From Lindgomyces ingoldianus (Eukaryota; Ascomycota; Dothideomycetes; Pleosporales; Lindgomycetaceae): DNA of 64,000 bases. Each line of letters begins with the position of its first letter. The first letter of the stretch is position 1. The DNA is taken from NCBI RefSeq assembly GCF_010093535.1, contig NW_022985228.1, positions 183,284-247,283 of the forward strand, written 5' to 3'. Shown here piece by piece: positions 1,796 to 34,290 of this stretch. The translations under genes were made by a program, and so were the position numbers. The notes beneath the pieces are model-generated. The model was not told the DNA's origin. It did no database searches and was given only the letters and a program-made list of their open reading frames with translations.

Positions 1796-2388
1796 TGTTA
1801 CGGTCTACAGTTGGACCAGCGTAACTCCACCGACAGTGCTCCACAATCTAGCTGGATTGGGACAGGGCTCGCTTAAAGACCAGTCGGAGGACACAGAGGC
1901 AGCGCAGCTGCCTGAAGTCATGGAAGAATGCGTCGTCCAGTAGGAAAGCAGGCCGCGAGTCCAGGGAGCTAAAGGGAGCCCATAGGAGCTCCTCTTAGCA
2001 GGCTCCTATAAACTCCCGCCAGCTCCCCTTAGCACTTTAGCACATGTATATAGTACGCACATTAAGCAACCTTTAGAAGGTGTGTTTAACATTTAGTTTA
2101 TTCTTTATATAGACTAAGTCGCATTTAGCTTTTTAAAGAGCTGTAATACTATTTATATATCTTGCACTATATATACCTCTAACCCTGTCTACTAGGACTG
2201 TTTAACCTAGCCTCTCTACTGCTGCATTAAGGGCAAACTACAATCTAGTCTCCCTATCCCTCTTTATTAGCCTAATAGCCTGTACGTAGGACTGTACACC
2301 TTACTAGATTAGCCTCTTCCCTCTAACCTCCTTTCTACACTAGGAGCATTCTAAGACCTAAGTGCTTCTTAAAGCAAGAATTATAACA
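1796..2388 (+). repeat. 5' LTR of gypsy-1
   Basis: 593 bp, starts TGTTACGGTC, ends TATAACA. It is preceded by CTATT. It is more RIP-mutated than its partner at 8,888-9,480, mainly over its last third. Confidence 0.93.
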
Positions 2389-5300
2389 TTAAACACTACC
2401 CCTTTAAAAAGTATAGTAACCTTATAACATAACTTAGATTCTAATATAGCCTATGCTGCGCTATTAGGATCTACAGAAGTTCCTACCTAAAGTAAAGCTG
2501 TTCTAGCAGAACAGATTAACTTAATCTAGGATAATATTAAAGAACTCTAGTAGATTAGTAATAAAGTTAGTAAGCTTAAGAAACTTAAGCAAAAAATTAC
2601 TAACCTCTAATAAAAAATAGTAGAACTATAAAATCTTTAAAAACCCCTAAGCCTTTAAAAAGCTACTAACTAAGCTTATTAGATATATAAATTATAAGTA
2701 AAGCTAGTAAAGATCTAGAACATTTTAATAAAAAAAGCAAGTATTATAGCTAAAAAGACTTTAAGACTAGCTCTTTTAAAGCTTTTTAAAGAATTATTAA
2801 AGAACCTCTAACTATTTTTTATAAAATGTTACCTCTACATGCAATATAATAAAAGAGTATTTTAGACTAACACAGAAATAATATTCTAAATAGAACTACA
2901 CCTAAAAGGCCCCTTTATAATTTAGTTTTAACTTTATGTAGACAACTAGATAAACTTTAAAGTAAATAGTAAAGCACTTACTTTTAAAACTAAAGAAATA
3001 TTTAGCAGCATTAAAAACTTTAAAGAAGCCTTAATAGCTATTTATAAAACTTTAAATAAAAAGAAAATTGCAGCTAATAAGCTAGACACTATAAAACAAA
3101 GAAATAACTTAGTTTAGAATTATGCAGCACGCTTTAGAGAATAACAAGCTATCTGCAGATAGATAGACTAGAAAGCTCTCTGCTACATGTTCTATAATAG
3201 ACTAAGTAAAATAGTAAAGGATAAGTTTATGCATAGTAATAAGCTAACTACCTTTAAAAATTTTATTACGTAAGTAATAACCTATAACAACTGCTATAAA
3301 GAGAGTAAGAGAGAAAAGAAATAAAAAGGAACTCTCTAAAAACTAAAGTTTATTCTTAAAAAAAGAAAGCTTTTATAATATAATAAAAAACTAATAGACC
3401 TTAGTTACATAAAGCATACATAAAGCCCCTCTTTTAAAAAGAGCTAAGTTTTAGAACATAATAAGCTGCCCCTAATAAAGAAATAATAAAAGTGGCTAAA
3501 AAATAAGGCCTGCCTAAACTATAGAAAAGTAGGACATTTCTACTAAAACTGCCTAGACTTCTAGAAGAGGGAGAATAAAAATACTACTATAATAATAAAA
3601 GCTATTACTGCTAAATACAGCCTTATAGATAAGAAAATATTAAAAAGATTAAATAACAGACTTTGCTAGTAATATAAAAGCAACTACTCTTTAAACAACT
3701 ATTTTAAAGTGTACTAAAAAGTAGTTATTTAAAACTTTAGTAGCCTTAATATAGTGTTACAGGACCTTATAATTCTTAAGGGATATAGAGAAAAGACTTA
3801 AATCTAAAGATACATTATAAATGTTTATAAAAAAGAAGAATAGTTTCTTCTATAAGACTAAATCTCTAGCACTTTAGTAAAAAAGCTCTTTTAATAGTTT
3901 TAAAAATGTAAATGCTAGAAATGTAGTCTATAACATAACTACTTAAGTTATTGCATAGTTATGCTTTACTAAGTAAATATTAGCAACAACTATCTTACAT
4001 TTAACATTATATAACATATAGCTAAAGTTAAATATAACATTATAAATAAAAAGAAATAATAGCAGTTTTTTATAAAAATCTAAGACTAGAAACTAGAAGG
4101 ACTAGGCAGACCTGCTAGGTTTAAAGTCCTAAAGCTAGTACTTAGGAAGCCTAAGACACTACTTCCTAGCCTTATAATTAGCAGAAAGGCTTTAGTAATG
4201 CAATAGAGCTATAGTTAGTGCGCACTCTGTAGAAATAAAACCTATAGCACTAATAATTACTAATAAAAAGGACACCCTGTTTAGATAGTACAAACGCAGG
4301 AATACTCTTAGTAGACCTAGGAGAGTCCTCTTAACACATTACATAGACCTAATAATTGTCTATACCCCTAGTACTAATGCACATAACAGTATTGCCTTAA
4401 GCATTAGAATAATAAGCATAAGATAGGCTAGTAGCCTACATAGAAAAAGAACTATAATAGATGCCTATAGTAAGGAACAGCCTTAGCCTGCAAAACTATA
4501 AACTGTTACACCTGCTAAATAGCGCCCCTACACAAGCAGAAGAAATAGGCAGCATGTAAAAAATAAGATAACTATAAGTTTTACTATTTTTAATAAAAAG
4601 CAGTAAGAAAAGAAGACTACTTAATGTTACATTACTTAGTTAAAGATTATAAATGTAAAGCAGCTAACTACTATAATAGAGAACATTAAATTAATAAAAA
4701 AAAAAATAAGTTTAATAATAACTTATAGAATATTAACTTATATCTTTTTTTAATAAAGAAGTTAAACATAACATAGCAGCAGTAATTATAGTAGAACAAG
4801 AGGCAGGACACAGCCTAACAACTACCTTTATGTATAAAGGGTAGCCTAGACTAGCTCTTGTAGACAGCAGATGCACCTTTACTGCTATAGATAAGGATTA
4901 AGTAGATAAACAAAGTATACTATTCTATATTAAAAAAAACTTATTTATGGTAACTCTTACTAACACATTATTAATTAAATATAGTAGAGAATAGATTAAC
5001 CTAGAAACTTATAAGAAAGACTTTAAGACCTCTAACATAAAAGACTAGAGGTCTATAAACATACTTAAGCTAGAAGGCAAATATAATATAATTTTAGGCT
5101 ATAATTAGCTTAAAACACATAATTCTGTAATTAACTAAAGGACTATAACTATAAAAACTTCTAACAACTATGCACACATAACCTAGTTAGCATGCTATAA
5201 TAACTAATGCCTAGTCTATAAATAAGCAAAATAAGGTAGCAGTTACTACTTAAAAAAAGAAAACTTTAGAAGTTCTCTTACTAAAAGCTAAAAGCCTAGG

Positions 5301-8100
5301 TAATAAAAATAATAAAAAAAAAACTTAAAAAAGTCCCTTATAAAAAAATTAAAGCTAATAAAGATGTAAAATAAATTAGCATTATCTAAGTCTAAGAAAA
5401 GAGCTACATCCCTGCTAAATATAAAAATTATAAGAATATGTTTAAGACACTAGAGGACCTAAAAGAACTACTACTACACTAGCCTTAGAATTATGCTATT
5501 AACTTAATAAAAGATTCTAACTTAAAAACCTATAAGCTCTGTCCTTTAATAAAGACATAAAAAAAAGCCTTATAAGAATACATTAATAGAATGCTAGCAT
5601 AAGGCTATATCTAAGAAAGCTATAGCTTAGTAGCTTTAGCTGTAGTTTTTGCAAAAAAGAAAAAAAAATTTAAGTTTATTAAAACTATAAGACTTTAAAT
5701 AATAACATAATCTAAAATTAGTTTTTTTTACTAATTATATAAGATATTATAAACTAATTAAAAGGAACCTAGTACTTTATAAAGTTTAATGTATAAGATA
5801 AATTTAATAAGATAAGAATAAGAGAAAGTAATAAATAGCTTACAGTGTTTAGAACCCTATAAAGACTTTATAAACTATTAGTAATACTGTTTAGCTTAAT
5901 AAATGCCCTAGCAACATTCTAGTAAATTATTAATACAGCCTTTAACCTATACCTTAATGTCTTTACTTTAGTATATTTAGATAACGTCCTTATCTATTTA
6001 AAAGATACTCTAGAAGACTATGTATAAAAGGTACAAAAAGTTTTAGAGCAGCTTAGAAAGTACAGACTTTACTTACAGCTCTCTAAATGCAAATTCTATG
6101 TTACTAAAATAGAATACTTAGAATTTATAATTAATAAAAAAAAATAAAAATTAACCTAGCTAAAGTATAAAAAGTACTTAAATAGCTTAAACCTATAATA
6201 GTTAAAGAAGTTAAAGAATTTCTAGGACTATCTAGGTATGTTAGATAAATAGTTAAAAACTATTTAAAAATTACTATACTATTAACTAACGCTATAACTA
6301 AAGAATAAGTAATAGCAAAATTTGTTTAGACTCTAGAAATAAATAAAGTATTTCTAGTGTTAAAGCAAGCTATAACAGCTAAGCTAGTGCTAAGAATGTA
6401 TAACCTATAGTTAGATACTAAAATCCACACAGATGCGTCCCTAGAAGCTAGCAGAGCGACCCTCTATTAAAAACAAGAAGACAGAAAATAGCACCTAGTT
6501 GCGTACTATTCTGCTAAGTTCTTAGGACCTAAAGCAGGGTACAGCATACCTAACAAAGAGTTAAAAGCAATACTAAATGCTGTAAGAGTATAGGCTATAG
6601 AGCTATATAAAATAGCAAAGCTGTTCTATATTATAACTAACTATGTAAATTTAGTTATGTTTCTAACAGTAAAGAAACTCTTACTAATGCATATAAAATA
6701 AGTAATAGAGCTTGCCTAGTTTAACTGCATTATTAAGTATGTTCTAGAAACATAGAACTAGTAGGCTAACGCCTTTAGCTAAAGACTAAACTACTTTAAT
6801 AAAGAAAAGAAAAGAACTAAAAAGTTTACACTTTTTAAAAAAACTAATAAAGAATAGATTTATAATAGGCCTAAACTTATAAAAGAATTCTACATACTTA
6901 TAGCTAGTAAGTAAAGATAAAAAAATTTAATCTAGAAATATTACAAATCTCTAATGTTTAGACACTTAGGAATAGGCACTTTTTAGAAAAAGCTAAGAGC
7001 TGCTATTTTTTAATATATACTAAAGATAAAGTAACTATGCACAGAGGTGCTTAGAGAATGTAATACCTATAATAGAAACAACTTATAAAGGCATAAGGCC
7101 TATAGGTACCTTTAACTAATTAAAGCCCTAAAGTTACTATAGATAATAATTATAATAAACTTTATTATAAGATTACCCCTGTCTAAAGAACTAGAGACAG
7201 ACAGGATGTGCAACATAATTATAGTAGCTCTAGATAAAACTACTAAGTATCTTTATACTTAGCCTTTAAAAAAGATAATAACTGCTAAAGAATTTATTTA
7301 TAAATTAAAACAGAACATAATATTAGTATATAAATGCTTTAGAATTATTATCTCTAACTAAGATAAATTATTTACTAGCAGCTTCTAGAAAGTAGTAATA
7401 AGGCACCTTAGTATAACATATAAGCTATTAACTGCCTACTACCTACAGACAGACAGCTAGACTAAAAGAGTAAATGTAGAAGTAAAGAAATACTTAAGAA
7501 AGTACATCTTCTATACTTAGAATAATTAGGCAGTATAGCTTCTAATAGCACAGCTAGCTATTAACAATGTAGAATTAGCTATAATAAAAAAAACACTATA
7601 TAGAGCTAATTTTAGATATAACTCTTACTTTACATTACATAGAAATTAACCTATAGACTTATAGAAATTAATAGATTAGCTAATAAACCTATATTAGATA
7701 TATAAAAAGTTAGCTGTAGAAGCTAGAACTAGCAGAGAAATAATAGAAACATATGTAAACAAATTATAACAGCTAAGACTAGAAATCTGCCTAGAAGACT
7801 ATGTCTACTTTAATATAAAAAACTTTAAGATACCTAGACCCTTTAGGAAGCTAGTAGAAAAAAAAATAAGACTTTATAAAGTTTTATAAACTTAGTAAAA
7901 TAACTGCAAGCTTAAGCTTTCTTTACACATAAAAATCTACTTATAGTTCTATATCTCTAGACTAGAAAAAGCACTTAAAGAGATTCCTTTATCTACACAG
8001 AGATAAAAGAATAAAGAAACAGAATATAAAGTTAAACACATTATAAGTAATTAAAAAAACTAGAAAAAATTTTTAGTAAAATAAAAAAGGTAGCTTACTA
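2389..8100 (+). pseudogene. gag-pol relic of gypsy-1
   Basis: No frame is open, but domains are legible in order. A zinc knuckle at 3,511-3,552 reads C-L-N-Y...GH....C, with the second Cys changed to Tyr. A retropepsin core at about 4,854-4,890 reads LALVDSRCTF, where the family has DSG. The reverse transcriptase active site at 5,974-5,985 reads YLDN for YLDD. An RNase H TDAS motif lies at 6,429-6,440. Integrase follows from about 7,150, with AYYLQTDS at 7,434-7,457 (family form AYHPQTDGQ). Each damaged catalytic residue is explained by one G-to-A or C-to-T change. The product would have been the Gag shell and the polyprotein for reverse transcription and integration. Confidence 0.9.
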
Positions 8101-8329
8101 GTAAAAACACATAGAAACTAGCTAAGAATTTGCAGAACGCGCAGCTGTTAGTATAAGAGTACCTTTAGGCTTATCTAAAAGAAACTAGCTAGGCAATAAA
8201 GCACCTATATTAAAAGGAACAGCTATGTTATTACTAGATAGCAGTAGCCTTTAGAGATAAGTCCTAGCTGATAAAGGCTAAGAGAGGGAATAGCTTTTTA
8301 CTTTAGCCTTAAGGGCTTTTATCTTGTCT

Positions 8330-8640
8330 AAGAAGGAGAGATTCTTTTTTAAGTACTTTATATAATAAGCCTTTAATAGATCTAATAACTTTTAGATATA
8401 ATTTTATCTAAAACGCTCTTTATTTATTACCTCTAGCATTTTCTTTTGTAAACAGAGTTGTTTCTAGACTTAAGCCTGCTACTTATTCTATAACACACAG
8501 TCCTAGGCCTGTAAGGTCTTAGCTTTATAAAAAAGCGTCTCTCTTTCTTTCTCTAAATAGTTCTATGTAGCATTAGAAATAAAGGTGTTGCATTTACTGT
8601 GCTTTTTTACACACTTAACGCATTTATCTAAGGACAAAGT
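8330..8640 (-). pseudogene. Antisense cysteine-motif ORF relic in gypsy-1, between integrase and 3' LTR
   Basis: On the minus strand, opposite to gag-pol, a frame begins LDKCVKCVKKHSKCNTFIS, continues NYLEKERE, and ends KLLDLLKAYYIKYLK. Interruptions are RIP-type stops. The order CxxC....C, a charged helical stretch, then a C-terminal YxIxYLK segment is also found in the second gypsy element at 14,957-15,238 with the same relative position and orientation. The CxxC cluster suggests a small zinc-binding or DNA-binding protein, but I do not recognise the family and make no functional claim. Conservation of the amino acid pattern in two diverged elements supports real coding in the past. Confidence 0.6.
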
Positions 8641-8887
8641 TAATATATAAGACAACTTTAAAAATTAGTAAGCGCTATAGGGTCTTATCTTTGTCTAGTA
8701 AAAAGAATTAAAATAAAAAGCAACATAAAGATAATAAAATAAACAGGACTAATAAGCTATTTAGTATAAAAAGAATAAATGTTAAGGACGCTTTCTAGTA
8801 AGAGAATGCACACTTTATAAATAAACTTTTACTAACACAGTTGTGTGAGCAGAGCGGCAAGGACGCCGCTAGGGAGCGGGGGCAGCG

Positions 8888-9480
8888 TGTTACAGTCTAC
8901 AGTTGGACTAGCGTAACTCCACTGACAGTGCTCCACAATCCAGCTAGATTAGGACAGGGCTTGCTTAAAGACTAGTTAGAGGACACAGAGGCAGCGTAGC
9001 TGCCTAAAGTTATAGAAGAATGCGTTGTTTAGTAGGAAAGCAGGCCGCAAGTCTAGAGAGCTAAAGGGAGCCTATAGGAGCTCCTCTTAGCAGGCTCCTA
9101 TAAACTCCCGCCAGCTCCCCTTAGCACTTTAGCACATGTATATAGTACGCACATTAAGCAACCTTTAGGAGGTGTGTTTAATGTTTAGTTTATTCTTTAT
9201 ATAGACTAAGTAGCATTTAGCTTTCTAAAGAGCTGTAATACTATTTGTATATCTTACACTATATATACCTCTAACCTTGTCTACTAGGACTGTTTAACCT
9301 GGCCTCCCTACTGCCGCATTAAGGGCAAACCATGATCCGGTCTCCCTATCCCTCTCCATTAGCCCAATAGCCTGTACGTAGGACTGTACACCCTACCGGA
9401 TTGGCCCCTTCCCTCCGACCTCCTTTCCACACCAGGAGCATCCTAAGACCCGAGTGCTTCCCGAAGCAAGGATTGTAACA
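8888..9480 (+). repeat. 3' LTR of gypsy-1
   Basis: 593 bp, starts TGTTACAGTC, ends GTAACA, followed by the CTATT duplication. Its distal end keeps GC-rich sequence such as 'gatccggtctcc' that is degraded in the 5' LTR. Confidence 0.93.
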
Positions 9481-11767: not shown

Positions 11768-11789
11768 TTATAGATCATAACAAAGGATT

Positions 11790-13010
11790 TTAGATAAGCA
11801 GGGGAAAGGTTATCATAGGAAACACTTAAACATTAATAGATGCTTGCTATAATAGCGACCTGTAATATCTTAAGAAGGGTATCTGCTAATTCGCGCAGGA
11901 GCGACCCATTCTATATGCGTACATTATAGGCACACATAGGGAGACAGTCTAATGCAGAGACAAGAAGGAGACAAAAACTATTACTGACTTTAGAGTCGTG
12001 ATTAGCATGTAGTTGTGCTTGTGGACTAACTTTAATGTAGTTAATACACGTTTGCTTAACCTCTAAACTATAGAGAATAGACTTAAATTCTTAGTTTTAT
12101 TAAGATTAACGTTTACTAAAATAGTGCCCTGTCTAGGGTACTTAATGCTAGGAGCTATCATAATCTTAATATTGTTAAACGTAAGGGCTATAATAGCTGC
12201 TAGCCTAGAGGCAGTAACTAAAGACAAAATAAAGAAGAGGGATATAAAGATTTAGACTAGGCCATTCAGCAGTTGCCTGTCGTTAATCTATAATGCGTAA
12301 AGGATAGCATATAAGTCCTTAACATACATAGCGTGCTTTTCGCTCTTAGATGTGTTAAGTTCTAATTTAGGAATCCACTATAACTATATTAGTAATCTGC
12401 TACGCAGAGAGAGTAGGGGGAGCGTACGTTGCAGATATTATCTAGAATGTTAGCATCTATATAGTACCTAGCGACGTCCTAGTAGGTCTAGCTAATCCTC
12501 TTCTAGTAACTTGTTATTAAGCTTTGCTTCTTAACGCGATAATGTTTCTTTTGCTAGCGTAGATAGCCTTTAAACATTTTAGGTTAGCACGTAAGTAGTA
12601 GTTCTTCTAGTAACTTCTTCGTCTTCTTTGTAATCTTTAGGCAATACCTAGCTATGATTTTATAGTTAGCAGAGTACGAGAGGCTAAGGTGCGAGTCCTA
12701 AGACAGGCTAGCTTGCCTGTTCTAGATTTTACGTTCGCTCTTCTACAGTTTTACTGTTTATAGTTTATGTCTAGATCTTGCTAGTCCCTTAAACTTGAAC
12801 TTAGCAATGTCCTTTATAATTTCCTCGCCTTCTAAGTCTAGCTCTAAGTCTAAACCTCCCTTCTAGGTGTTGTCTTTAATACCTTCTAAGGCAGCAGGTT
12901 TAAGGCTTACGTTCACTTTAGCGTTAGTATCTAGATCTAATTGTATGTACGAGGATAAACTTAAGGTGTATCCGCTCTCCTAGTCCAAGTCTAGGGTCGT
13001 GGGCTAGGTA
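11790..13010 (-). pseudogene. DUF3435 tyrosine recombinase relic (Starship captain family)
   Basis: Minus-strand frames, joined across a few RIP stops and one or two frame changes, read KKLLEELLLTCQPKMFKGYLR, then RVKKQSLITSYQKRIS, then TYQDVARYYIDANILDNICN (about 12,430-12,490), then KSEKHAMYVKDLYAILYAL, then VTASRLAAIIALTFNNIKIM (12,165-12,224), and GTILVNVNLNKTKNLS. This is the layout of fungal DUF3435 proteins: an N-terminal 'RPEDFKGYL...SSITSYWKRLS' helical part, then the recombinase domain with a T(G/A)SRPGA arginine motif and a YKD-type segment. The C-terminal HxxR and Tyr part was not found; a 223-bp element sits where it would continue. Such proteins drive Starship giant mobile elements and lie at their 5' end. 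Here the next gene downstream is the TRM1 relic. Family assignment by eye. Confidence 0.6.
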
Positions 13011-13560
13011 GATAGATGCGATGGATAGCAATTTCGCGCGGGAGTGCTATTTGCATAGGATGTAGAGATCATAGAGAAGGACGAGGACGAGGAGAAGGCG
13101 GTGGTGGTAGTGATAGCCATAGCAACAGCTAGCTCTCTACGAGCAGTTCGCGCTATAGGAGCCATTAGAGCTGTTAGTGAAGCAGCAGCGGCAGACAAGC
13201 AGGCGCTGCTAAAGACAGTGTAGAAGAGCAGGAAGAGGGATAGAGAGCAGGCAGCCGTAGTAGTGGTCGAGCAAAGCGTGGGTCTGCTATTGCTTTAAAT
13301 AGGCGCTAGCAACAAGAAGGGCCAACAACAAGCTGCGCTATATAGGCCGCCGACTAGAAAGGTAAGGCGTAAGTAAGAAAGATAAGCAAAGACGTTACAA
13401 GGGGCAGGAATAAGGCTCCTCTTAGCGTCTTGTAAGCGAGCACGTAGGCAGGGGACTTGTAAAAGCGGCAACGTGGAAGGGGTTAAGCAAGGTAGAATTG
13501 CCTCTAAAAGCGGCAGCGCAAACCTGCCTAACACAGATGCAATCCCACTGTCACATGCAT
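13011..13560. other. GC-richer uncharacterised stretch upstream of the recombinase relic
   Basis: CpG-rich sequence with alanine/serine-rich frames on both strands, none convincing. It would be the 5' flank of the DUF3435 relic. If that gene was a captain, one end of the former mobile element should lie here or just beyond. No terminal repeat was identified. Confidence 0.3.
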
Positions 13561-13599
13561 TTTATAAGTAATAAAAAAAATAGTGCTACTAAAGTTTAT

Positions 13600-13900
13600 T
13601 TAAAAATATTATAACTAACTAGTCTGTTTAAAAAAGATGATTTTACTTAACTTTATATTTTATAAACTTAAATATATTAAGTAGAGTAAGCTTTACTAAT
13701 AACTTACTTTATTTTTAGTAATACTATAAAGATAATAAAATTATTACTATTTATATACTTTTTTTTTATTACACTTTTTATAGCTACTTAATATAGATTG
13801 TTTTCCTTTTTTAAAAGAGTTATATAGACGCTAAGCTAAAAACTTTATATAGAACTAAATTACTTATTATATAGTAAGCTTATAAGTAAAGCAATACTTA
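13600..13900 (+). pseudogene. Fot1/pogo-like transposase fragment
   Basis: Near-identical at nucleotide level to 28,165-28,330 of the complete family-2 element (27,226-29,088): the segment that encoded 'NKII...' and the 'LLQPLN' region of the DDE transposase. The matching right end of a similar element lies at 40,240-40,645, beyond the big gypsy insertion, so both may once have been one transposon. Confidence 0.65.
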
Positions 13901-14107
13901 AAAATAAATACTAGCTAGCTAATTCTTAGCTTTAATTAGGTTAGTAAAATTTCTTTTTTAAAAACTTAATGTTTATATAAATTTAAGATTAGTTATTTTA
14001 GAAATTAGTTAATTATTAGCTGTAATTAAGAGAACACGTTCTAGCTGTAGCCTTTAACGCGTTTCTACTGTTGCAATAGTCTTTCTCTTCTTTACACCTT
14101 ACAGTCT
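13900..14107. other. Left piece of an unnamed repeat split by gypsy-2
   Basis: Ends ...ttacagtct at the insertion point of gypsy-2; its continuation starts agtctctagcg at 39,748. The joined sequence matches, inverted, the unit around 37,460-38,160. No coding content seen. Confidence 0.5.
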
Positions 14108-14694
14108 TGTTACAATCCTTGCTTCGGGAAGCACTCAGGTCAATGTTGTTCCTAGGGATAGGACGGAGGCTAGGGGCTGACGGTAGAGTGTACAGTCCTA
14201 CGTAACGGCTAATAGGCTAATGGAGCAGGCTAGAGTGACCAGATTGTAGTTTGTCCCTATGGCGGCAGTATAGTGGCCAGGTTAAACAGTCCTGTTAGAC
14301 AGAATTAGAGGTATATATGTTATAGATATTTAAATAGTATTATAGCTCTTTAGAAAGCTAAAACGCTACCTAGTCTATATAAAAAATAAACTAAACATTA
14401 AACACACCTTTTAAAGGTTATTTAAAGTTAGAACTATATACATATTTAACAGTGCTAAGAATAAGTTGTTTAAGTTTAGATAAGCTTACTATATAGTAAA
14501 CTTATCTAACTTACTTAGACTTGTTTTATTCCCTTAGCCTTCTTTTCAACTAGACAATGCATTCTTCTGTAAGCCTAGGCAGCTGCGCTGCCTCTACATC
14601 TTCTAGTTAGTCTGTAAACAAGCTCTGCTCTAACCTAGCTAGATTGTAGAGTACTTTAGGTAGAGTTATATTAGTCTAACTATAGACTATAACA
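14108..14694 (-). repeat. Left LTR (3' LTR) of gypsy-2
   Basis: 587 bp, starts TGTTACAATCCTTGC, ends CTATAACA. Related in reverse orientation to the end of the gypsy-1 LTR (shared 'gtgcttcccgaagcaagg' block). Confidence 0.92.
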
Positions 14695-14956
14695 CACTGC
14701 CTCCCCTCTCTAGTAGCGTTCTTACTGCTCTGCTTATACAACTGTGTTAGTAAAAGTTTATTTATAAAGGAAGTGTCTACCTACTAAAAGGCGTCTGTTA
14801 TATCTATCTTTCTTATACTAAATAGCTTATTAGAAGTGTTTATTTTACCTTTTTTATACTACTTATTATTTTAATTCTTTTTATTAGATAAGGATAAAAC
14901 TTTATAACACTTACTAATTATTAAGTTTAACTTATGTACTAACCTTATTCTTAAAT

Positions 14957-15238
14957 AGGTATGTAGAGTGTGTAAAAAAAACATAACTAGTGTAACACTT
15001 TTATTTCTAACACTATATAAAATTATTTAAAGAAGAAAAGAGAAGACCTTTTTTAATCTGCTAAGGTAATAAAAGTTTATAAGTAAAAGCTTATAAACAA
15101 ATATTTACACCTAGTAGAAAAGCTTCTTAAGAAGGCAGCAAAGATAAAAATAATGTTAGAAAAAAAGTGTTTTAAATAAGATTATATTTAAAAATTACTA
15201 AATCTATTAGAGGTTTATTGCATAAGGTATTTAAAGGG
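14957..15238 (+). pseudogene. Antisense cysteine-motif ORF relic in gypsy-2
   Basis: Reads opposite to this element's gag-pol. Legible pieces are a damaged CxxC, CNTFISNTI, NYLKKKRE, LLKKAAKIKIMLEKKCF, and KLLNLLEVYCIRYLKG. The same order is present in gypsy-1 at 8,330-8,640 on its antisense strand. The predicted protein would be short, with an N-terminal Cys cluster and a long helical C-terminal part. The family is unrecognised. Confidence 0.6.
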
Positions 15239-15986
15239 GGACCTTTTTTTCTTAAATAAAATAGCAGCTTTTAAGGCAGTAGTAGAGGGTTAATTACCTT
15301 TCTAACCTTTTTCTACTAGTACTTATCTTTAAAGGCTACTGCTATGTAATAATAACATAGCTATCTTTTTTAAAATAAGGGCCTTATTACTTAGCTAGTT
15401 CTTCTTAGAAAAGTTTAGAGGTACTTCTATACTAATTACTGTAAATTCTGCAGGTTTTTACCTAGTTTCTAGGTGTTTTTACTAGTAAGCTATTTTATTT
15501 ATTTTACTAAAAATTCTTTTTTATTTTTTTAGTTACTAATAATTTATTTTACTTTATATTTTATTTCTATTTCTTTTTATTTTTATATTAATAAGGGAAT
15601 TTCTTTAAGCACTTTTTCTAACTTCAAGATGTAGAACTATAGGTAGATTCTTATATGCAGAAAAACCTTTAGTTTATTATTGTTCTATTAAGTTTAAAAA
15701 ACTTTATAAAGTTGTATTCTTTTTTCTATAAGCTTCTTAGAGGGTTAGAGTAGTTTAAGGTTCTTTATTTTAAAGTATACATAGTCTCTAAAGTAAATTT
15801 CTAGGCTGCGTTTTTATGTCTAGTCTATGTATTATTCTATTATTTTTTAACTAGATTTAGCTTTAACTACTAACTTTTTATATATATTTTATAAGTTTAT
15901 TAGGCAGTTAATTAGTTCTAGTAGGTCTATAAGTTAATTTCTATAAAGTGTGTAGCAAAGATAGTAACTAAAATTTACTTTATATA

Positions 15987-16139
15987 TGTAAGGACGGAGC
16001 TCTGTACCACTACGCCAATACAACCAAAAAGGTGCGAGTAATCAACCAACAGTTAATTATTGCGTACAGAATAGTATATATACCCGTCGCACGTAAGCAC
16101 CATCTCGGCCTTACACGTAAGCGCCATCCCGGCCTTACA
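15987..16139 (+). mobile_element. Solo LTR of the TRIM-like family, TSD ATATA
   Basis: 153 bp, starts TGTAAGGACGG, ends CGGCCTTACA, flanked by ATATA on both sides. It is hardly RIP-mutated although it sits in ruined gypsy-2 DNA, so it is a later arrival. Its last 24 bp are tandemly duplicated (cgtaagcRccatcYcggcc), which accounts for the extra length over the 129-bp copies at 46,851 and 47,275. Confidence 0.88.
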
Positions 16140-16359
16140 ATATAAGGTTTTCTTTATTATAGTAGATTCTACTATGTTAATAGTAAGCTGTGCTATTAGA
16201 AGCTATTCTGCCTAATTATTCTAGCTATAAAATAAGTACTTTCTTAAGTATTTTTCTACTTTAGCATTTATCTATTTAGTCTAACTGTCTGTTTATAAGT
16301 AGTATACTATAGACAACTTATGTGTTACACTAAGATGCCTTATAGCTACTTTTTAAAAG

Positions 16360-16629
16360 TTGCTAGTAAATAGCTTATTTTTATTAAAGATAAGAATCTT
16401 AAAGTATTTATATACTAAAACTATGTTTTATTTAAGTTTATATGTAAATTTCTTAGCTATAATAGTTTTCTTTAATAGCTATATATATATAAATTTAGTA
16501 GTTTTATTAAAAGCTATAGTTATTATATTCTACATTCTTTCTATACTAGGTTCCTTTAACAAAGAAAGGCTAGTTATAAAGTCTATAGTAATTATTATCT
16601 ATAATTGCTTTAAATCTTTAATTAGTTAA
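16360..16629 (-). pseudogene. gypsy-2 integrase-region relic (open frame on the plus strand is spurious)
   Basis: Part of the reverse-oriented pol of gypsy-2. An 89-codon open frame on the plus strand is rich in Ile, Leu and Tyr, as expected for the complement of RIP-ruined DNA, and matches no family. Confidence 0.55.
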
Positions 16630-16671
16630 AAGTATCTATAGGTTTTATGCCTTTAGAGGTTACTTCTATTA

Positions 16672-17803
16672 ACGTACCTAACGGGTTGGCCGGCCACACG
16701 GGTTGGCCGGCTACTTTTGCTAAGCCCCCACCAAACTCTACCTATCTACATAATGCCTTAACAACAACACTAGATTAAATCTTCTAAAGAATGTTAGATA
16801 CAGCTTACTCTTTAGGCTCTTAAATAAAACTTAAAACTCTTCTTAGAACGCGCTATAGCTATCTATAATGTCTCTTACACAACACTAAGTAATTAACGCG
16901 CTAGACAGCCTTTATAAGCAGAATGCTAGCCTAAATTAAGGAATCTAACTAAGCTTAAAAAAAAAGTAGTTGTTAAGTACATACTTAAGCTTATTACACG
17001 CAGATTTCCTCTTAGGGTTACAGCTATAGCTAATATAGCTAATTTCTTACCCGCAAAGCGCAATCTAGGCTAGGTTAGCTTAAACTAGACTAGTATATAA
17101 GTTAAGCACTACCCTAAGTTTATAATAAAGTTTAATTACAAGTATAATTATAAAAAAGCGCTTTATAAGAATTTAGAGGTTATCTAGGGCTAGTTTTGCC
17201 TAGTAGCTAACATAAAAGCTAAGTATAGTATTTAGAATAAAAATAGGTATAACTTTAACAAGTTAGGCTTTATAATAGGCTAGATATTAACTAGAGTAGT
17301 TATTATAGCTTTAGAGAGACAAAGACAGCTAAAGGCAATATAGTAAAGTAATAAAAAGTAGATAATAGTTATCTAAGGCATTAACATAATAAAGTAGGCT
17401 ATAAGATTATAAAGCTTTAAGCAGCAAATAAAGCTGCTACGTAATATAAATTGCATAAAAAAAAGCAAATTTAGGTAAAAAAGACTTTAATAGTTAAAAA
17501 TAGAGCTTATTTAACTGCTCTAAAGGAGTTTAGAGCGCGTAGTAATAAGAAGAAGCTAAAGACACAAGTGCGCGCTAAAGAAAGTAAGCTAAGTTAAAGG
17601 CAATGCAGGTAGTGCAATTAGACTAGGCATAACTTGCGTATGTGTAAGCAAGTAGTAAAAGTAGACTCTAAATAATATCTTATGTTATATTACTTTATAC
17701 AGGGCTAAAGTGGGCTGTTTTGCGAGAGAATAGAGTAGTTTTAGTAGGGGCTTGGCAAAAGTGGCCGGCCAACCCGTGTGGCCGGCCAACCCGTTAGGTA
17801 CGT
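16672..17803 (+). mobile_element. Fot1/pogo-like DNA transposon, family 1, internally deleted copy (A)
   Basis: TA target duplication, then terminal inverted repeats ACGTACCTAACGGG...CCCGTTAGGTACGT. Inside each end the block GGGTTGGCCGGC occurs twice, probably the transposase-binding sites. Relic translation contains KAKYSI, YNFNKLGFIIG and VVIIALERQ, the family form being KYGI...YNFDETGFMMG...RR. Most of the DDE domain is missing: sequence jumps from the '...NAK' region to the C-terminal part. Length 1,132 bp, identical to copy D, with the same deletion. Inserted in gypsy-2. Confidence 0.88.
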
Positions 17804-17805
17804 TA

Positions 17806-19294
17806 CATGTATTATATTCTTTAAGTACTTCAATGCATAGTTGCTTAATCTTAGGTATTAGTTAAAGTATAGTTGCCCTTAGCTTCTTCTAAAGAGTGCT
17901 AATTTCTAGATGTCTAAACATTAAAAATTTATAATATTTATAAATAAAGTTTTTTTATTCTTTCTTAGTTATTATAAGTGTGTAGAATTTTTAATAGGCT
18001 TAAGTTTATTATACTCTAATCCTTTCTTTAATTTTTTTTTTAAAAAGGGTAAACTTTTTAGTTCTTTTTTTTTATCTATTAAAATAGTTAAGTTTATAGC
18101 TAAGAGTGTTAGCTTACTAGTTTTAGGCTTTAGAAACATGTTTAATAACATAATTAAACTAAGTAAGTTTTATTACTTATTATATGTGCATTAGTAAAAG
18201 CTTTTTTATTATTAAAAACATAACTAAAATTGCGTAGTCTATTATAATATTAAAGTGTTTTCTTATTCTATGCAGTTCTATTACCTAGACTTGTACTACA
18301 TTTAATATTACTTTTAATTCTTTATTAAGTATACTATAGTCTGCTTTAGCTTCTAAGAACTTTGCTAAGTAGTATACTACTAGATGCTATTTTCTGTCTT
18401 CTTATTTCTAATAAAAGGCTGCGCTGCTTGCCTTTAAGAATATATCTATATAGATTTTTATATCTAATTATAAGTTATATATTTATAGTACTAGTTTAAT
18501 AGTTTTAGCTTATTTTAATATTTAAAGGGCGTTACCTATTTATAAAGTCTAAGTAAATTTTATAACTACTTTTTCCTTAGTAGTAGTGTTAGTTAGAGGT
18601 AAAGTAATTTTTCAGTAGTCTTTAATTATTTATTTAACATACTTAGATAATTCTAGAAATCTTTTAACTTTTTTAACTATTATAAGCTTTAGCTATTCTA
18701 AGACTTTTTATATCTTAGCTAGGTTAATTTTAATTTTATTACTATTAATTATAAACTTTAGATATTTAGTTTTAGTAACATAAAATTTGCATTTAAATAG
18801 CTAGAGATAGAGTCTATATTTTTGTAGCTTGTCTAAGACTTTTTGTACCTTTTATACATAGTCTTTTAGGCTGTTTTTTATGTAAATAAAGACGTTGTCT
18901 AAGTATACTAGCATAAAGACATTAAGGTATAGGTTTAGAGCTATATTAATAATTCTTTAGAATGTTGCTAGGGCATTTATTAAGCTAAATAGTATTACTA
19001 GTAGCTTATATAGTTCTTATAAAGTCTAGAAGGCTGTTAACTATTTATCTTCTTCTTTTATCTATATTTTATTAAATTTATCTTGTATGTTAAACTTTAT
19101 AAAGTACTTAACTCTTTTTAGTTAGTTTATAATGTCTTAGATAATTAAAAAAAAACTAGTCTTAAATTATATTATTATTTAAAGTTTAGTAATTTTAGTA
19201 AACTTTAATCCTTTTTTTTTCTTCTTTATAAAAACTACTGCTAAGGCTACTAAGCTATAGCTTTTTTAAATATAGCTATATACTAATATTTAGT
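17806..19294 (-). pseudogene. Reverse transcriptase/RNase H relic of gypsy-2
   Basis: Minus-strand reading gives the RT active site YLDN (18,905-18,894) followed by VFIY, where the family has YLDD, and an RNase H part near 18,390-18,420 that matches gypsy-1 6,440-6,490. The D-to-N change is one RIP transition. Confidence 0.82.
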
Positions 19295-19296
19295 TA

Positions 19297-22278
19297 ACGT
19301 ACTTCACAGGCGAGTTGCTTACACACCTAAGTTACTTACTTTTACTAAGACTCTACTACACTATTCTTCTTACACTAATGCATTCCTAATAACACTACTT
19401 AAATGTGTTAAAAGAATATTAGATGTAGCTTATACTCTAAGCTTTTAAATAAAACATAATACTTTTTAAGCAACACACTACAGCTATCTATAAAGTCTTT
19501 TAAAAAATAATAAGTAACTAACATACTAAATAACTTTTCTAAGCTAATTATATAGCTAACTTATACAAGCTAGATAATAATAAAAAGTAAGTAATTATTT
19601 AGCATATACTTAAGCTAAATATATAAAGATTTCCCTCTTAGCTAGTAGCTGTAGCTAATATAGCTAATTTTTTACACACTAAGCATAATATAAGCTATAT
19701 TAGTATAAACTAGCTTAATATGTTTATTAAGTGTTACTTAAAGCTTAAAGTAAAGTTTAAGTATAACGTACCTAACAGGTTGGCCAGCTACACAGGTTAG
19801 CCAGCTACTTTTGCTAAGCCCCTACTAAAACTACCCTATTCTCTTGTAAAACAGCCTACTTTAGCCCTATATAAAGTAAGACAACATAAGATATTATTTA
19901 GAGTCTACTTCTACTACTTACTTACATATATGTAAGTTATGCCTAGTCTAATTACACTACTTATATTGCCTTTAACTTAGCTTACTTTTTTTAGCGCGTA
20001 CTTGCGTCTTTAGCTTTTTCCTATTACTACGCGCTTTAAACTCCTTTAGAGTAGTTAGACAAGCCTTATCTTTAACTATTAAAGTCTTTTCTACCTAAAT
20101 TTACTTTTTTTAATGTAATTTATATTATATAGCAGCCTTATTTACTACTTAAAGCTTTATAATCTTATAGCCTACCCTGTTATATTAATGCCCTAGATAA
20201 CTATTATTTACTCTTTATTACTTTACTATATTACCTTTAGCTGTCCTTATCTCTCTAAAGCTATAACAACTGCTTTAGTTAATATCTAGCCTATTATAAA
20301 GCCTAACTTATTAAAGTTATACCTGTCTTTATTTTAGATACTGTACTTAGCTTTTATGTTAGCTACTAAGCAAAACTAGCCCTAGATAACCTTTAGATCC
20401 TTATAAAGCGCTTTCTTATAATTATACTTGTAATTAAACTTTATTATAAACTTAGAGCAGTGCTTAACCTATATACTAGGCTAGTTTAAGCTAACCTAGC
20501 CTAGATTGCGCTCTACAGGTAAGGAATTAGCTATATTAGCTATAGCTGTAAGCCTAGAGAGAAATCTATGTGTAATAAGCTTAAGTATATACTTAATAAC
20601 TACCTTTTTTTTAAGCTTAGTTAAATTCCTTAATTTAGGCTAGCATTCTGCTTATAAAGGCTGTCTAGCGCGTTAATTGCTTAGTGTTATGTAAGAGACA
20701 TTATAGATAGCTGCAGCATGTTGCAAGAAGAGTTTTAAGTCTTATTTAAAAGCCTAAAAAGCAAGCTGTATCTAATGTTCTTTAGAAGATTTAATCTAGT
20801 GTTGTTGTTAAGGCATTATGTAAATAGGTAGAGTTTAGTAGGGGCTTGGCAAAAGTAGCCGGCTAACCTGTTAGGTACGTTAAGTATAACTATAAAAAAG
20901 CTTTTTATAAAAATCTTATAGTAATTTAAAGCTAGTTTAACTTTATAAAAAATATTAAAGCAAAGTATAGTATCTAAAATAATAATATATATAACTTTAA
21001 TAAAATAAAGTTTATAATAAGCTAAATATCTACTAAAGAAGTTATTATAAGTTTAAAGAGATAAAGATAGCTAAACGCAGTCTAACTAGGTAACTAGAAG
21101 TAGATAATAGCTATTTAAAGCATTAATGCTAAAAAGTAGGCTATTCTACCTTTTATTATTTTCTAGAGTAGTAACTACTTTTTAAACTAGTATAAAAAAG
21201 AAAATTTACTTTAAAATTAAGTTATTATAATCTTTAAGTGTAGCTAGACTACTAATTAGCTTAGTCTAGACTAGTTAAAGCACTTTAATGTGCATATAAA
21301 AAAGTGTACTATTTGTAGCTACTATCTGCTAGTTATTAATAGCTATAAAAGCTATAACTTACTTTATTTTTAGTAATACTATAAAAATAATAAAATTATT
21401 ACTATTTATATGCTTTTTTACTTATTATACTTTTTATAGGTACTTAATGTAAGTTGTTTTACTCCTTTAAAAAAGGTGTATAAGCGCTAAGCTAAAAACT
21501 TTATACATAACTAGATTACTTATATTATAAAGATAAAATTCCTACTATGCTTTAAAGTAGCTTATAATACTATAATTACTTTTAGTAATATTTAAAAAAG
21601 GTTTTAAAGCGCTAGATTAATTCTTTTTAACCTATAATAAGTTATAATAAGCTTTAATGTAAAGTTATGCACTTTATTACTACTACTACTTATATATAAT
21701 AAGCCTTAGTAGTTATAAACTTTAAGTAATACCTTAGAACTTAAGTTATAATTAATACTTATAAAAATAAAAATCTAAAAGCATATAAATAGTTTACTAA
21801 CTTTTATAGTTAAGGTGTTTAAAAAGGTTTTAAAAAGAGTAGTAATAATAATTTATAAGCTAGTGTTAGTATAATCAAAAATTACTAAGCTTTAAGCAGC
21901 TAATAAAGCTGCTATGTAATATAAATTATATAAAAAAAGTAGATTAAGGTAGAAAAAACTTTAATAATTTAAAAAAGCCTACCCTTAATAGCTCTAAAGA
22001 AGTTTAAAGCGCATGGTAACAAAAAAAAAGCAAAGAAGCAGGTATTAGCTAAAGTAGGTAAGCTATTCTAAAGGCGCTGCAGATAGTGTAATTAGACTAG
22101 GCATAACACGCAAATGTGTAAGTAAGAAGCAGAAGTAGTATCTAAATAATATTCTAGGCTGTACTATACTATATAGTGCTAGAGCAGGTTGTTATAGGCT
22201 ATAATAGAGTTTATTAGGGTGGGGTCTTAGCAAAAGTAAGCAACTTGGGTGTGTAAGCAACTTGCCTGTGAAGTACGT
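19297..22278 (+). mobile_element. Fot1/pogo-like DNA transposon, family 2 (B), carrying a nested family-1 copy
   Basis: TA-flanked, with inverted ends ACGTACTTCACAGGCGAG...CTTGCCTGTGAAGTACGT. Without the insert it is about 1,865 bp, the same as the complete copy at 27,226-29,088. Transposase relics are legible before and after the insert, including the 'LLVINSYKSY' region, where the family has LILDGHxSH with Asp as a DDE catalytic residue, here Asn. Inserted in gypsy-2. Confidence 0.88.
19766..20880 (-). mobile_element. Fot1-like family-1 deleted copy (C), nested in B
   Basis: 1,115 bp, reversed relative to its host. The join is clean: removing the insert and one TA restores the host sequence as seen in other family-2 copies. 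It shows the same internal deletion as A and D. Confidence 0.88.
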
Positions 22279-22280
22279 TA

Positions 22281-22715
22281 ACATATTTTTATAAGGCTTT
22301 CTTCTATGTTCTTGTTAAAGGACAGAGCTTATAAGTTTTTAGGTTAAAATCTTTTATTAGGTTTATAGCATAATTCTATAGGTAGTGTAGAGGGACTTTT
22401 TCTTAGTTCTTAGGTGTTTTAAACATGTCTTTATAATCCTTATATATAGTAGAGATAGCTTTTGTTTTTAGATTTTATAAATACTAACTTATTCTGCATC
22501 TTTATTAGCTTTAAGTTTTTTATAAAAAACTTTTTTTAGTTTTTTTTTATTACTTTTATTACTTTAGCTTTTAGCTTTTAATAAGAGAATTTCTAAAGTT
22601 TTTATTTCTTTAGATAGTAACTACTACCTTATTTTACTTATTTATAAATTATGTATAAGTTGTTATAGCATACTAACTAGATTATACGCGCATAGTTTTT
22701 AGGACTTTTTATAGT
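22281..22715 (-). pseudogene. gypsy-2 pol relic between insertions
   Basis: Matches, in reverse, gypsy-1 at about 5,440-5,570 (block 'aaaggacagagcttata'), placing it in the spacer between protease and reverse transcriptase. Confidence 0.7.
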
Positions 22716-22856
22716 TGTCGCGTATACTAAGGGCCTTAGCTAGGGCTTAGAGCCTAGGACTAGGGCTTAGAGCCTGGGACGCAGCTTAAGATCTAGAGAT
22801 ATTATGTTCTAAAGCTTAGTGTATATAAGAAGAGCCTTTAGCTCTTTTAGATAGCA
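22716..22856 (+). repeat. 5' LTR of the copia element
   Basis: 141 bp; contains a doubled 'gggcttagagcctRgga' block. The partner is at 30,679-30,819. Confidence 0.88.
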
Positions 22857-24004
22857 GAGTTACTTTATCTAATCTTCTAAACAGCTACTGCTAGGCTATT
22901 TTACCCTTTATAGTTATAGGCCTAGCGCTTTAAGAACCTAGAATAATTCTTCTTACATAACTATAGCACTATTAAAAGCTATTTTAAAGCTCTTTTATTT
23001 TTATTACCTTTAAAGCCTACATTATAGCTAATTAAAATGCTTCTCTTCTAACAGAAGTGTACTAGCTTAAGGACTATGTAAGCTAGCCTCTCTAGTTTAT
23101 CTAGCCCTAGTTCTATGCTCTTAGTAAAAACCTATAGAACATAATTAATCTAGATAGACTAGACGCTCTAAATTCTATAGACAGCGCTTTAAAAATGCCT
23201 ACACTTAAAGTAATTACTGCTAAGAACTTACTAGAAAAGGCTAACATATAGTACTAAACTAATATTACTAAGTACTAAGCTTACTTAAGTAACTAGGCTT
23301 CCTACATAACATATTTTTAGATAATTTAGAACTAAGTTAATGTAACTGTTGCACTAGAGCTTCTTAGATCTATAATAATATAGCTTATATTAAAAAACTA
23401 ATTTACTTTATAAGCACTTATATAAGCCTTAAAATAAAAGCTAGCACTAATAAACATAAGCATAAAAAAATTTATATAAGTAAAGTATAAAGCTTACTTT
23501 ACTAAAGTAAAGCATAGCACTATAACCTTAAAAGCTTAGTACTAGCAGTAGTACTTTTTATACACTAAGGTAAAAACCTATAAGATTTTTAATATAGAAG
23601 GCTAGCTAGCTGTATAAGACTTTTTAGACACCCTAGCTTTAAAGCTTACACTAGACTAGGCGCGCTTTATACACTAAAGGGTTATAAAGGCTAGTACACT
23701 TAGTAAGAAACTTTTAATAATTTAAAAAATTAGTAAAATTATTTTACTAATACTTTAAAAGCACTTTTTATATATAAGTAACTAAGGTATAAGTATATTT
23801 ATAATACTTAGTACATAATTAGATAATAATTTAGCCTAATTTATTTTAGCCTAATTAGGCTACTTATGCTTATGTAAAGCTTTAGAGTAATTTTTTTATT
23901 TATAAAAAGTAGTAAACTATAGAGACTTTATATTAGTAGTTGCTAGAAAGCTAAAAAACCTTAGTAAAACTACATACTAAAAGATTTTTAAAAGGCTTAA
24001 GTAG

Positions 24005-24292
24005 GTGCAGTATAAGAAAGTAAAAGCTATACTGCTTAAAAAAAGCTATATAATTTTAAATAAAGCTTTTTTTACTTTAAAAGCTATTAAAGAATTAGAT
24101 AAGCTAGTATTTATAAAAGGCATTATTACTATACTTATTAACTTAGCACTTTTAGTGAAACTAAAAATACATATAACTATAAATTTTAACACTTACTTAC
24201 TTTTTATAAGCATAATTTTAGATAATAAAAGTGCTATGCACTTAGTAAATAGTATAAAGCTACTTATACTTAAGTTATTTAAAAAAGCTTAA
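24005..24292 (+). pseudogene. copia protease-region remnant
   Basis: A 95-codon stretch happens to be free of stops. It contains ILDNKSAMHLVNSIKLL, where copia proteases read W-ILDSG(A/S)..H. The catalytic DSG has become DNK through RIP-type changes. It is a remnant of the polyprotein, not a gene; its first codon is an accident. Confidence 0.7.
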
Positions 24293-27223: not shown

Positions 27224-27225
27224 TA

Positions 27226-29088: not shown

Positions 29089-29099
29089 TAATTATTTTA

Positions 29100-29520
29100 T
29101 AAATATATTATTTTACTTTTTAAAAAACTAAATTTATAGAAAGTAGCTTTTTAGTTAATAGTAACTACATTTATAATAAAAGCTAAGCTACTTACTTTAG
29201 TGCATATTATAAAAGAATTACTAGCTTTAAAACACTTTATTAAAAAGCTTACTTTAGAGCTAGGCACACTATAGTAGATCTACTGTAATAACTAGCAAAT
29301 AATTTAGTTAGTAGTAAAGAAGAACGCCTAGATAACTACCTACCTGCGCTATATTAATATCTAGAACATGTAGCGACGCTAGAAGCACATAAAAGAATCT
29401 TTTAAAGTGCACTATATTAAAATAAGTAACATACTAGTAGATAAACTTATAAAGCACTTACTAAAGTAGTAATTTAAGCACTTTAAGTAGCTTCTTAACT
29501 TTAAAGACATATAAATAAGC
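29100..29520 (+). pseudogene. copia RNase H remnant
   Basis: Reads HIIKELLALKHFIKKLTLEL, then IYCDNQQTIWLV, then HIKESFKVHYIKISNILVDK, then LLKQQFKHFKQLL. Copia RNase H has AEYMAL..A.KE..WL...L, CDNQ.AI.LA, KHID...HFIRE and LADILTKPL in this order. This fixes the element as copia and plus-oriented. Confidence 0.8.
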
Positions 29521-30678: not shown

Positions 30679-30819
30679 TGTTGCGTATACTAAGAGCCTT
30701 AGCTGGGGCTTAGAGCCTAGGACTAGGGCTTAGAGCCTAGGACGCAGCTTAGGATCTAGAGATATTATGTTCTAAAGCTTAGTGTATATAAGGAGAGCCT
30801 TTAGCTCTCTTAGATAGCA
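30679..30819 (+). repeat. 3' LTR of the copia element
   Basis: 141 bp, starts TGTTGCGTATAC, ends TAGATAGCA, followed by TAGT. Confidence 0.88.
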
Positions 30820-32021: not shown

Positions 32022-32023
32022 TA

Positions 32024-33154: not shown

Positions 33155-33156
33155 TA

Positions 33157-34288: not shown

Positions 34289-34290
34289 TA

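What the first reader, a model, noticed from the sequence alone, without database searches (positions are those of the whole stretch)
11790..13010. Ruined Starship-captain-like tyrosine recombinase (DUF3435) next to a host-gene duplicate
Minus-strand relic reads KMFKGYLR, SLITSYQKRIS, TYQDVARYYIDA, YVKDLYAILYAL and TASRLAAIIA, the N-terminal and arginine-motif signatures of DUF3435 captains. Captains lie at one end of Starship elements and are transcribed into the cargo. The next gene downstream on the same strand is the TRM1 relic, which raises the possibility that a Starship-like element once carried or captured TRM1. DUF3723-like and PD-(D/E)XK genes lie only about 2 kb away once the 25.6-kb gypsy-2 is removed, though on the other side of the recombinase.
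Basis: partly seen in the sequence, partly recalled or inferred. Interest (0 to 1): 0.8.

Follow-up and report, generated by a model that had tools for sequence, protein, structure and literature searches.

The report
Dead Starship captain beside foreign genes
In a freshwater fungus, the wrecked front end of what looks like a giant "Starship" transposon sits fused to two broken genes that look as if they came from a related fungal genus, so it may be the remains of a gene transfer between fungi.

Summary
The relic is real. On the minus strand at 13165-12081 lie the first 303 residues of a DUF3435 recombinase (PF11917), with 14 in-frame stops and one 50-bp intron. Its closest relatives found are Lentithecium and Polyplosphaeria proteins; the captain of the Starship Sanctuary is more distant. 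It keeps the catalytic R and K but lost the YxxR and catalytic tyrosine. Upstream, 400 bp before the start codon, its DNA breaks into the interior of a high-copy repeat at ATTACT, which fits Sanctuary's published direct repeat ATWHCT. A second captain relic (contig C66) breaks into a related repeat at the same hexamer. So this is probably a Starship 5' edge.

DNA from 803 to 12078 (less insertions) is TRM1 plus the start of its divergent neighbour gene, fused to the captain where both genes are cut. It is not a recent copy of the resident gene: four of four trees place this TRM1 with Clohesyomyces aquaticus, not resident Lindgomyces TRM1. Best reading: a derelict Sanctuary-like Starship joined to foreign, possibly Starship-borne, cargo. 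Not shown: the element's 3' end, or that it carried TRM1.

The parts
12428..13165 (-). captain (DUF3435 tyrosine recombinase) relic, exon 1, residues 1-204 of P0002; 12 in-frame stops
   Evidence: tblastn P0002, 54% identity; stops listed
12378..12427 (-). 50-bp intron GTACGC...TACTAATAT...TAG between the two exons
   Evidence: sequence and frame change at residue 204/205 of P0002
12081..12377 (-). captain relic, exon 2, residues 205-303 of P0002; holds the equivalents of Sanctuary R260, A263 and K308; 2 stops; rest of the gene missing
   Evidence: tblastn P0002 69%, P0001 76% identity; residue map
13166..13565 (-). 400 bp of DNA upstream of the captain ATG, read as the 5' terminus of the element; single-copy as far as 13560
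   Evidence: search with 11800-13560 finds only itself; ends at repeat R
13566..13572 (-). edge: ATTACT(T) on the minus strand, fits the Sanctuary direct repeat ATWHCT
13566..14102 (+). interior part of high-copy repeat R, continued after gypsy-2 at 39752-40057
12078..12081 (.). fusion point: captain cut after residue 303, neighbour gene cut after residue 168
11773..12078 (+). neighbour gene relic, residues 67-168 of the resident 409-aa protein
   Evidence: tblastn 48% identity
11545..11767 (.). 223-bp mobile repeat TGTAAT...GTTACA inserted in the neighbour gene, TSD TTATA; 40 other near-full copies at 94-99% among the 40 candidates scored
11347..11538 (+). neighbour gene relic, residues 1-63
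   Evidence: tblastn 49% identity
9492..10670 (-). TRM1 relic, 5' part; 72% identical to Clohesyomyces aquaticus, 60% to the resident gene; 8 stops
1796..9480 (.). gypsy-1 inserted in TRM1, TSD CTATT (1791-1795 / 9481-9485)
806..1789 (-). TRM1 relic, 3' part; 65% identical to Clohesyomyces aquaticus, 56% to the resident gene; 14 stops
14108..39747 (.). gypsy-2 with nested insertions, TSD AGTCT, inserted in repeat R upstream of the captain

Best explanation
This is the 5' end of a derelict Starship of the Sanctuary kind, in a genome that is most likely Lindgomyces ingoldianus. Shown here: a captain relic (first 303 residues), dead by stop codons and by loss of the YxxR and catalytic-tyrosine half. 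Well supported: its 5' edge lies at 13565/13566, where the element inserted at ATTACT inside a high-copy repeat. Inferred mechanism: the captain acted as a tyrosine recombinase that cut and pasted the element at ATWHCT-like sites. After insertion, C-to-T mutation at CpA (RIP, or its spread from neighbouring repeats) and a deletion killed the captain. The deletion fused it to a segment holding the start of one gene and all of TRM1. That segment derives from a Clohesyomyces-like lineage rather than from a copy of the resident locus. The simplest account of both facts is that the segment was cargo of the Starship and came in with it. A 223-bp element, gypsy-1 and gypsy-2 broke the block up further; the order of these insertions relative to the fusion was not tested. 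The step 'cargo of the Starship' is inference (about 0.5 on its own); captain relic 0.98, 5' edge 0.85, foreign TRM1 0.8.
For: Captain. It is sister to Lentithecium and Polyplosphaeria proteins at 100/100, masked or not (23 of 39 relatives used). The wider family includes P0003, which has the 786 aa and the six active-site residues published for the Sanctuary captain (R260, A263, K308, Y424, R427, Y458). Edge: repeat R runs uninterrupted through the point in 4 of 4 other copies fetched. The break is at ATTACT; the Sanctuary consensus ATWHCT was read only afterwards. The chance of the motif within 1 bp of a random point in R on that strand is 1.7%. The distance to the ATG is 400 bp, against about 350 bp in Sanctuary. 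A second edge at C66 breaks a related repeat at ATTACT in the right orientation, 598 bp from the captain-like ATG; this one was looked for after the motif was known. Foreign segment: relic plus Clohesyomyces at 100/98-99 in 4 of 4 trees. With TpA-ambiguous residues masked, identity is 0.81 and 0.81 (two TRM1 parts) to Clohesyomyces, 0.67 and 0.67 to the resident gene, and 0.73 and 0.70 between those two. 490 transversions against the resident locus are too many for RIP of a recent copy.
Against: The element's 3' end and its partner half of R were not found in the 50 kb to the left. A pattern search for one form of the 3' junction, up to 1 mismatch, found 0. The captain/cargo junction is a broken one, so adjacency need not mean co-transfer. 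The AU test (masked sets) rejects relic plus resident TRM1 for the first TRM1 piece (p 0.000175) but not for the second (p 0.144). No Clohesyomyces protein appears among the named ones of the 39 captain relatives. Lindgomyces and Clohesyomyces TRM1 lie far apart for one family (69%), so hidden paralogy is not excluded. The relic is only 32-41% (exon 1) and 45-50% (exon 2) identical to P0003.
Confidence: 0.6

Rival explanations
1. The captain relic and its 5' edge are real, but the TRM1 segment has nothing to do with the Starship: a separate transfer, introgression or rearrangement put the two side by side.
For: The junction at 12078/12081 cuts both genes, as an illegitimate join would. No 3' end of an element enclosing TRM1 was found in the 50 kb to the left.
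Against: The segment lies exactly on the cargo side of the edge with no other DNA between, and it is foreign on the tree, which a mobile element would explain.
Confidence: 0.25
2. Hidden paralogy: TRM1 and its neighbour were duplicated before Lindgomyces and Clohesyomyces split; Clohesyomyces kept the relic-type copy, Lindgomyces the other.
For: In one family the two genera's TRM1 are only 69% identical. The AU test does not reject relic plus resident for the second TRM1 piece.
Against: It needs a two-gene duplication, long survival of both copies in a lineage whose genome bears RIP-like marks, and reciprocal loss. The first TRM1 piece rejects relic plus resident.
Confidence: 0.15
3. Genome-wide hybridisation with a Clohesyomyces-like parent left many second copies, of which this is one.
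For: It would also give a Clohesyomyces-like TRM1 with its neighbour in order.
Against: Two single-copy families tested, eIF-6 and Ssl1, each match at one place only, with no relic second copy found.
Confidence: 0.05
4. A lone DUF3435 recombinase pseudogene without a Starship; the break into repeat R is an ordinary deletion or translocation point.
For: DUF3435 recombinases are more often found solo (PMC12134995, passages).
Against: Two captain relics in this genome break into related repeats, both at ATTACT and both reading away from the edge.
Confidence: 0.12

Closest known systems
Sanctuary captain and Starship (Bipolaris sorokiniana; PMC12506042, passages)
   Same: Same wider captain clade; catalytic R, A and K positions kept; direct repeat ATWHCT; captain a few hundred bp from the 5' edge.
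   Different: Relic about 32-41% identical in exon 1 and 45-50% in exon 2 to P0003, which I take for the Sanctuary captain; truncated and RIP-marked; no 3' edge found; TRM1 is not among the Sanctuary cargo named in the passages seen.
Lentithecium fluviatile K458DRAFT_312707 and Polyplosphaeria fusca EJ04DRAFT_606100 (PF11917)
   Same: Closest sequences found: 0.83-0.86 identity at residues not open to RIP; one clade at 100/100.
   Different: Without stops; their genomic setting was not available.
Derelict Starships such as the Horizon fragments in Parastagonospora nodorum (PMC12506042, passages)
   Same: Broken element seen as a trace of horizontal transfer.
   Different: There the cargo is shared with an intact element in another species; here no intact element is known to me.
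Frontier (Alternaria ventricosa; PMC11857905, passages)
   Same: Captain of the Sanctuary group (98.1% identity to the B. sorokiniana captain).
   Different: 81.9-kb element; no TRM1 was mentioned in the passages seen.

Membership tests
DUF3435 (PF11917) | sequence match to the family | tested here: met
   Both closest proteins, and all 39 listed relatives of P0002, carry PF11917; bare hmmscan of the relic is under the cut-off, E 0.034
Tyrosine recombinase (working) | full R...K...YxxR...Y active site | tested here: not met
   R, A and K equivalents present; the Y424, R427 and Y458 equivalents are absent with the lost half; 14 stops
[quoted passage not shown]
   Edge 400 bp upstream of the ATG, captain reading away from it; the edge rests on repeat copies, not on an empty allele
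Starship element | short direct repeats at both ends | tested here: inconclusive
   5' ATTACT found; 3' end not found in 50 kb
Starship element | presence/absence between isolates, empty site | not testable with these tools
   Only one genome held; uninterrupted repeat copies serve as a stand-in
Starship element | accessory genes (DUF3723, FRE, PLP, NLR) | tested here: inconclusive
   No DUF3723 match in the 40.8-43 kb gene, which lies outside the predicted element anyway; the cargo side was not screened for these families
Sanctuary navis | captain orthologous to the Sanctuary captain, same direct repeat | tested here: inconclusive
   Same wider clade and a repeat fitting ATWHCT, but 32-50% identity and outside the tight Bipolaris/Pyrenophora/Alternaria group
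Copy of the resident host gene | relic TRM1 closest to the resident TRM1 | tested here: not met
   Groups with Clohesyomyces at 100/98-99 in 4 of 4 trees

The most novel reading that the evidence does not exclude
A Sanctuary-like Starship moved a housekeeping tRNA methyltransferase gene with its syntenic neighbour from a Clohesyomyces-like fungus into Lindgomyces, two freshwater genera, and was then silenced. It would be a fossil of Starship-borne transfer of core genes, with mobile elements nested in it that could date it.
Probability: 0.4. Interest if true: 0.7.

Novelty: new member of a known kind. Interest (0 to 1): 0.55.

Why it matters
Starship edges are usually set by comparing isolates. 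Here an edge was placed in a single genome by using high-copy repeats as stand-in empty sites, and it agreed with a direct repeat published for a related element in another fungus; a second captain relic in the same genome agreed too. If the TRM1 segment came with the element, it shows that Starships can carry core genes between genera, not only accessory or adaptive ones, and that such loads may be destroyed rather than kept. The captain's nearest kin are 83% identical between two families (Lentitheciaceae and Tetraplosphaeriaceae) whose TRM1 proteins are 61% identical in the same two species, which is itself a sign of horizontal movement of this captain clade.

Tried and rejected
Bare Pfam search of the relic: too weak to decide. 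DNA paralogues in the own genome: the first search scored only 40 of 223 candidates, all copies of the 223-bp repeat at one end of the query; repeated without that repeat (11800-13560) it found only itself, 1 candidate of 1 scored. Protein copies of exon 2: only itself. Rest of the captain (residues 301-706 of P0002, with the matching parts of P0001 and P0003) and rest of the neighbour gene in the window and 50 kb to its left: none at E up to 1. A tRNA gene suspected near 11.2 kb: ARAGORN found none. The Hephaestus motif TTAC(N7)A (seen) also fits the edge (note), but it occurs 11 times in the 1,267 bases of R on that strand and belongs to another family, so I do not lean on it. Genome-wide hybrid: not supported by two single-copy families. 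DUF3723 at 40.8-43 kb: no match. Edges at the other DUF3435 places of this genome (six places): one shows an edge of this kind, C66. At C14, C8 and C12 no repeat shared with the other sequences held lies within 1 kb upstream of the captain match; at one C74 place the nearest repeat ends about 1.4 kb before the only match, and at the other none of the 39 captain relatives matched. The repeat at the C66 edge is not R itself but one that shares a stretch of about 175 bases with R; the break lies in that stretch, and six of six other copies printed run on alike past it. Papers: passages only of PMC12506042, PMC9594970, PMC12134995, PMC11857905 and PMC12153272; search listings only for Lindgomyces ingoldianus (6 papers) and Clohesyomyces aquaticus with 'horizontal' (8 papers; one paper is in both lists). 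None of those titles is about this locus or about Starships in Lindgomyces; I read none of them, though one is about ToxA transfer between wheat pathogens. The search (DUF3435, Starship, captain) listed 9 papers.

Full report
WHERE. The window is contig C67:183284-247283 of a 68.4-Mb genome. The protein record P0041, named Lindgomyces ingoldianus, lies on a contig of 1,664,003 bases, the length of contig C9 here, and 4 of 5 stretches of 60 residues of it read letter for letter from the C9 locus L039. So the host is most likely L. ingoldianus, Pleosporales, Lindgomycetaceae; Clohesyomyces is in the same family. That both are freshwater fungi is recalled, not looked up.

THE RELIC. tblastn of the Polyplosphaeria fusca PF11917 protein P0002 finds residues 1-204 at 13165-12428 (54%) and 205-303 at 12377-12081 (69%), E 5e-88 together; Lentithecium fluviatile P0001 gives 76% in the second part. 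Between them lies a 50-bp intron with GT, a TACTAAT branch site and TAG. There are 12 stops in 246 codons and 2 in 99, all TAG or TAA, in a stretch with raised TpA (12001-13000: TpA/ApT 2.03, the other RIP index 0.57). Masking every residue open to C-to-T/G-to-A change at TpA raises identity to 0.83-0.86. On a tree of the relic and 23 of the 39 relatives it stands with Lentithecium and Polyplosphaeria at 100/100, masked or not.

WHICH CAPTAIN CLADE. A search with P0002 (7,996 candidates scored) listed 39 proteins including itself; the named ones are mostly Pleosporales, with a few from elsewhere such as Geoglossum, Elasticomyces and Coniosporium (names; their placing is recalled). P0003 has exactly the length and six active-site residues published for the Sanctuary captain, so I take it to be that protein or a near twin (inference). 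The relic keeps the equivalents of R260, A263 and K308 and has lost Y424, R427 and Y458. The missing residues were found neither in the window nor in 50 kb to its left. Apart from itself the relic has no DNA copy in the genome.

THE 5' EDGE. At 13566 the DNA upstream of the captain meets a repeat. In 4 of 4 other copies fetched the repeat runs on through this point (in three of them it begins about 435 bases earlier), so the window copy is interrupted, not at its own end. On the minus strand the shared sequence ends ...TTATTACTT. Only after that did I read that Sanctuary's direct repeat is ATWHCT; ATTACT fits. A motif within 1 bp of a random point of R is expected at 1.7% on this strand. A second captain relic, on C66, of the same broad family, lacks much of its middle. 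Its upstream DNA meets a related repeat at ...AAAATTATTACTA, again at ATTACT and in the right orientation, 598 bp before the ATG. For that strand the expectation is 1.2-1.3%, so both together about 2 in 10,000 if the edges are independent; against this, C66 was looked at after the motif was known and is one of six other DUF3435 places, the other five showing no such edge. Sanctuary's captain lies about 350 bp from its edge; here 400 bp.

THE NEIGHBOURING SEGMENT. With relaxed scoring, 803-1796, 9491-11490 and 11774-12077 align with the resident TRM1 locus (L039) in order. They hold TRM1 and, read the other way, residues 1-63 and 67-168 of the next gene. gypsy-1 (1796-9480, TSD CTATT) and a 223-bp element (11545-11767, TSD TTATA) interrupt them. 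The segment stops at 12078, three bases from the last matched captain codon, so both genes are cut at one fusion point. Against the resident locus the changes are 417 of RIP type, 204 reverse transitions and 490 transversions over three blocks, which RIP of a recent copy does not give.

ORIGIN OF THE SEGMENT. The relic's best protein match is Clohesyomyces aquaticus TRM1 (72%, 576 bits) before the resident one (60%, 457 bits) (the best 120 of 1,736 hits were listed). Masked identities in the two TRM1 parts are 216/267 and 183/226 with Clohesyomyces, 174/258 and 149/224 with the resident gene, and 188/258 and 156/224 between these two. All four trees (two parts, masked and unmasked; the relic plus 29 of the 120 listed hits, chosen by me) join relic and Clohesyomyces at 100/98-99, and these with the resident gene at 98-100/93-95. 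In masked 16-row sets the AU test rejects relic plus resident for part one (p 0.000175) and not for part two (p 0.144). eIF-6 and Ssl1 match at one place each, so no sign of a hybrid genome in 2 of 2 families. I favour transfer from a Clohesyomyces-like source; old hidden paralogy is the main rival. The neighbour gene's own origin was not tested by a tree.

HOW IT WORKED. From the family (PMC12506042, passages): the captain is a Cre-like tyrosine recombinase that moves the element by excision and re-insertion between short target repeats. Here the recombinase inserted the element into repeat R at ATTACT (inferred), the captain then lost its catalytic half and gathered RIP-type stops, and the block was broken further by other elements. 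The TRM1 segment lies on the cargo side of the edge and is foreign on the tree, so the simplest account is that it was cargo; the fusion point then marks a deletion inside the element. I could not show the element's other end.

WHAT IS NEW. Derelict Starships and captain relics are known. Specific here are the host, the placing of edges by repeat copies, and a probably foreign housekeeping gene fused, with its neighbour, to a captain. Two listings showed no paper title on this locus; that is not proof of absence.

On recheck I repeated the paralogue search, confirmed the two families and corrected the C66 repeat from 'the same family' to 'a related repeat'.

Noticed in passing
L045 (C66:107500-117499), 3619-5588: Second captain relic of the same broad family, lacking much of its middle (catalytic part included), its 5' flank breaking into a repeat related to R at ATTACT: a second candidate Starship edge.
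   Followed up: partly
C67:181915-183300 (1368 bases left of the window to window 17), minus strand: 462-residue stop-free stretch; the 2 kb around it have GC about 50% and no RIP marks; no convincing Pfam match; perhaps the later part of a transcription-factor gene (impression only). It sits just beyond TRM1. Window 1-820 is single-copy in the genome.
   Followed up: partly
window 45113-45940: Open PDDEXK_12 (PF20516) frame in a GC-rich stretch without RIP marks, about 5 kb beyond gypsy-2.
   Followed up: no
   Followed up: partly
window 11545-11767: 223-bp repeat with ends TGTAAT/GTTACA and 5-bp TSD, 40 other near-full copies at 94-99% among 40 scored of 269 candidates: a young mobile element or solo LTR.
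   Followed up: partly
L040, L041, L042, L043, L044 (C14, C8, C12, C74 twice): Other, more distant DUF3435 genes or relics in the same genome.
   Followed up: partly
proteins P0001 and P0002: The captain is 83% identical between Lentithecium and Polyplosphaeria while the TRM1 proteins of the two species are 61% identical, which suggests horizontal movement of this captain clade.
   Followed up: partly
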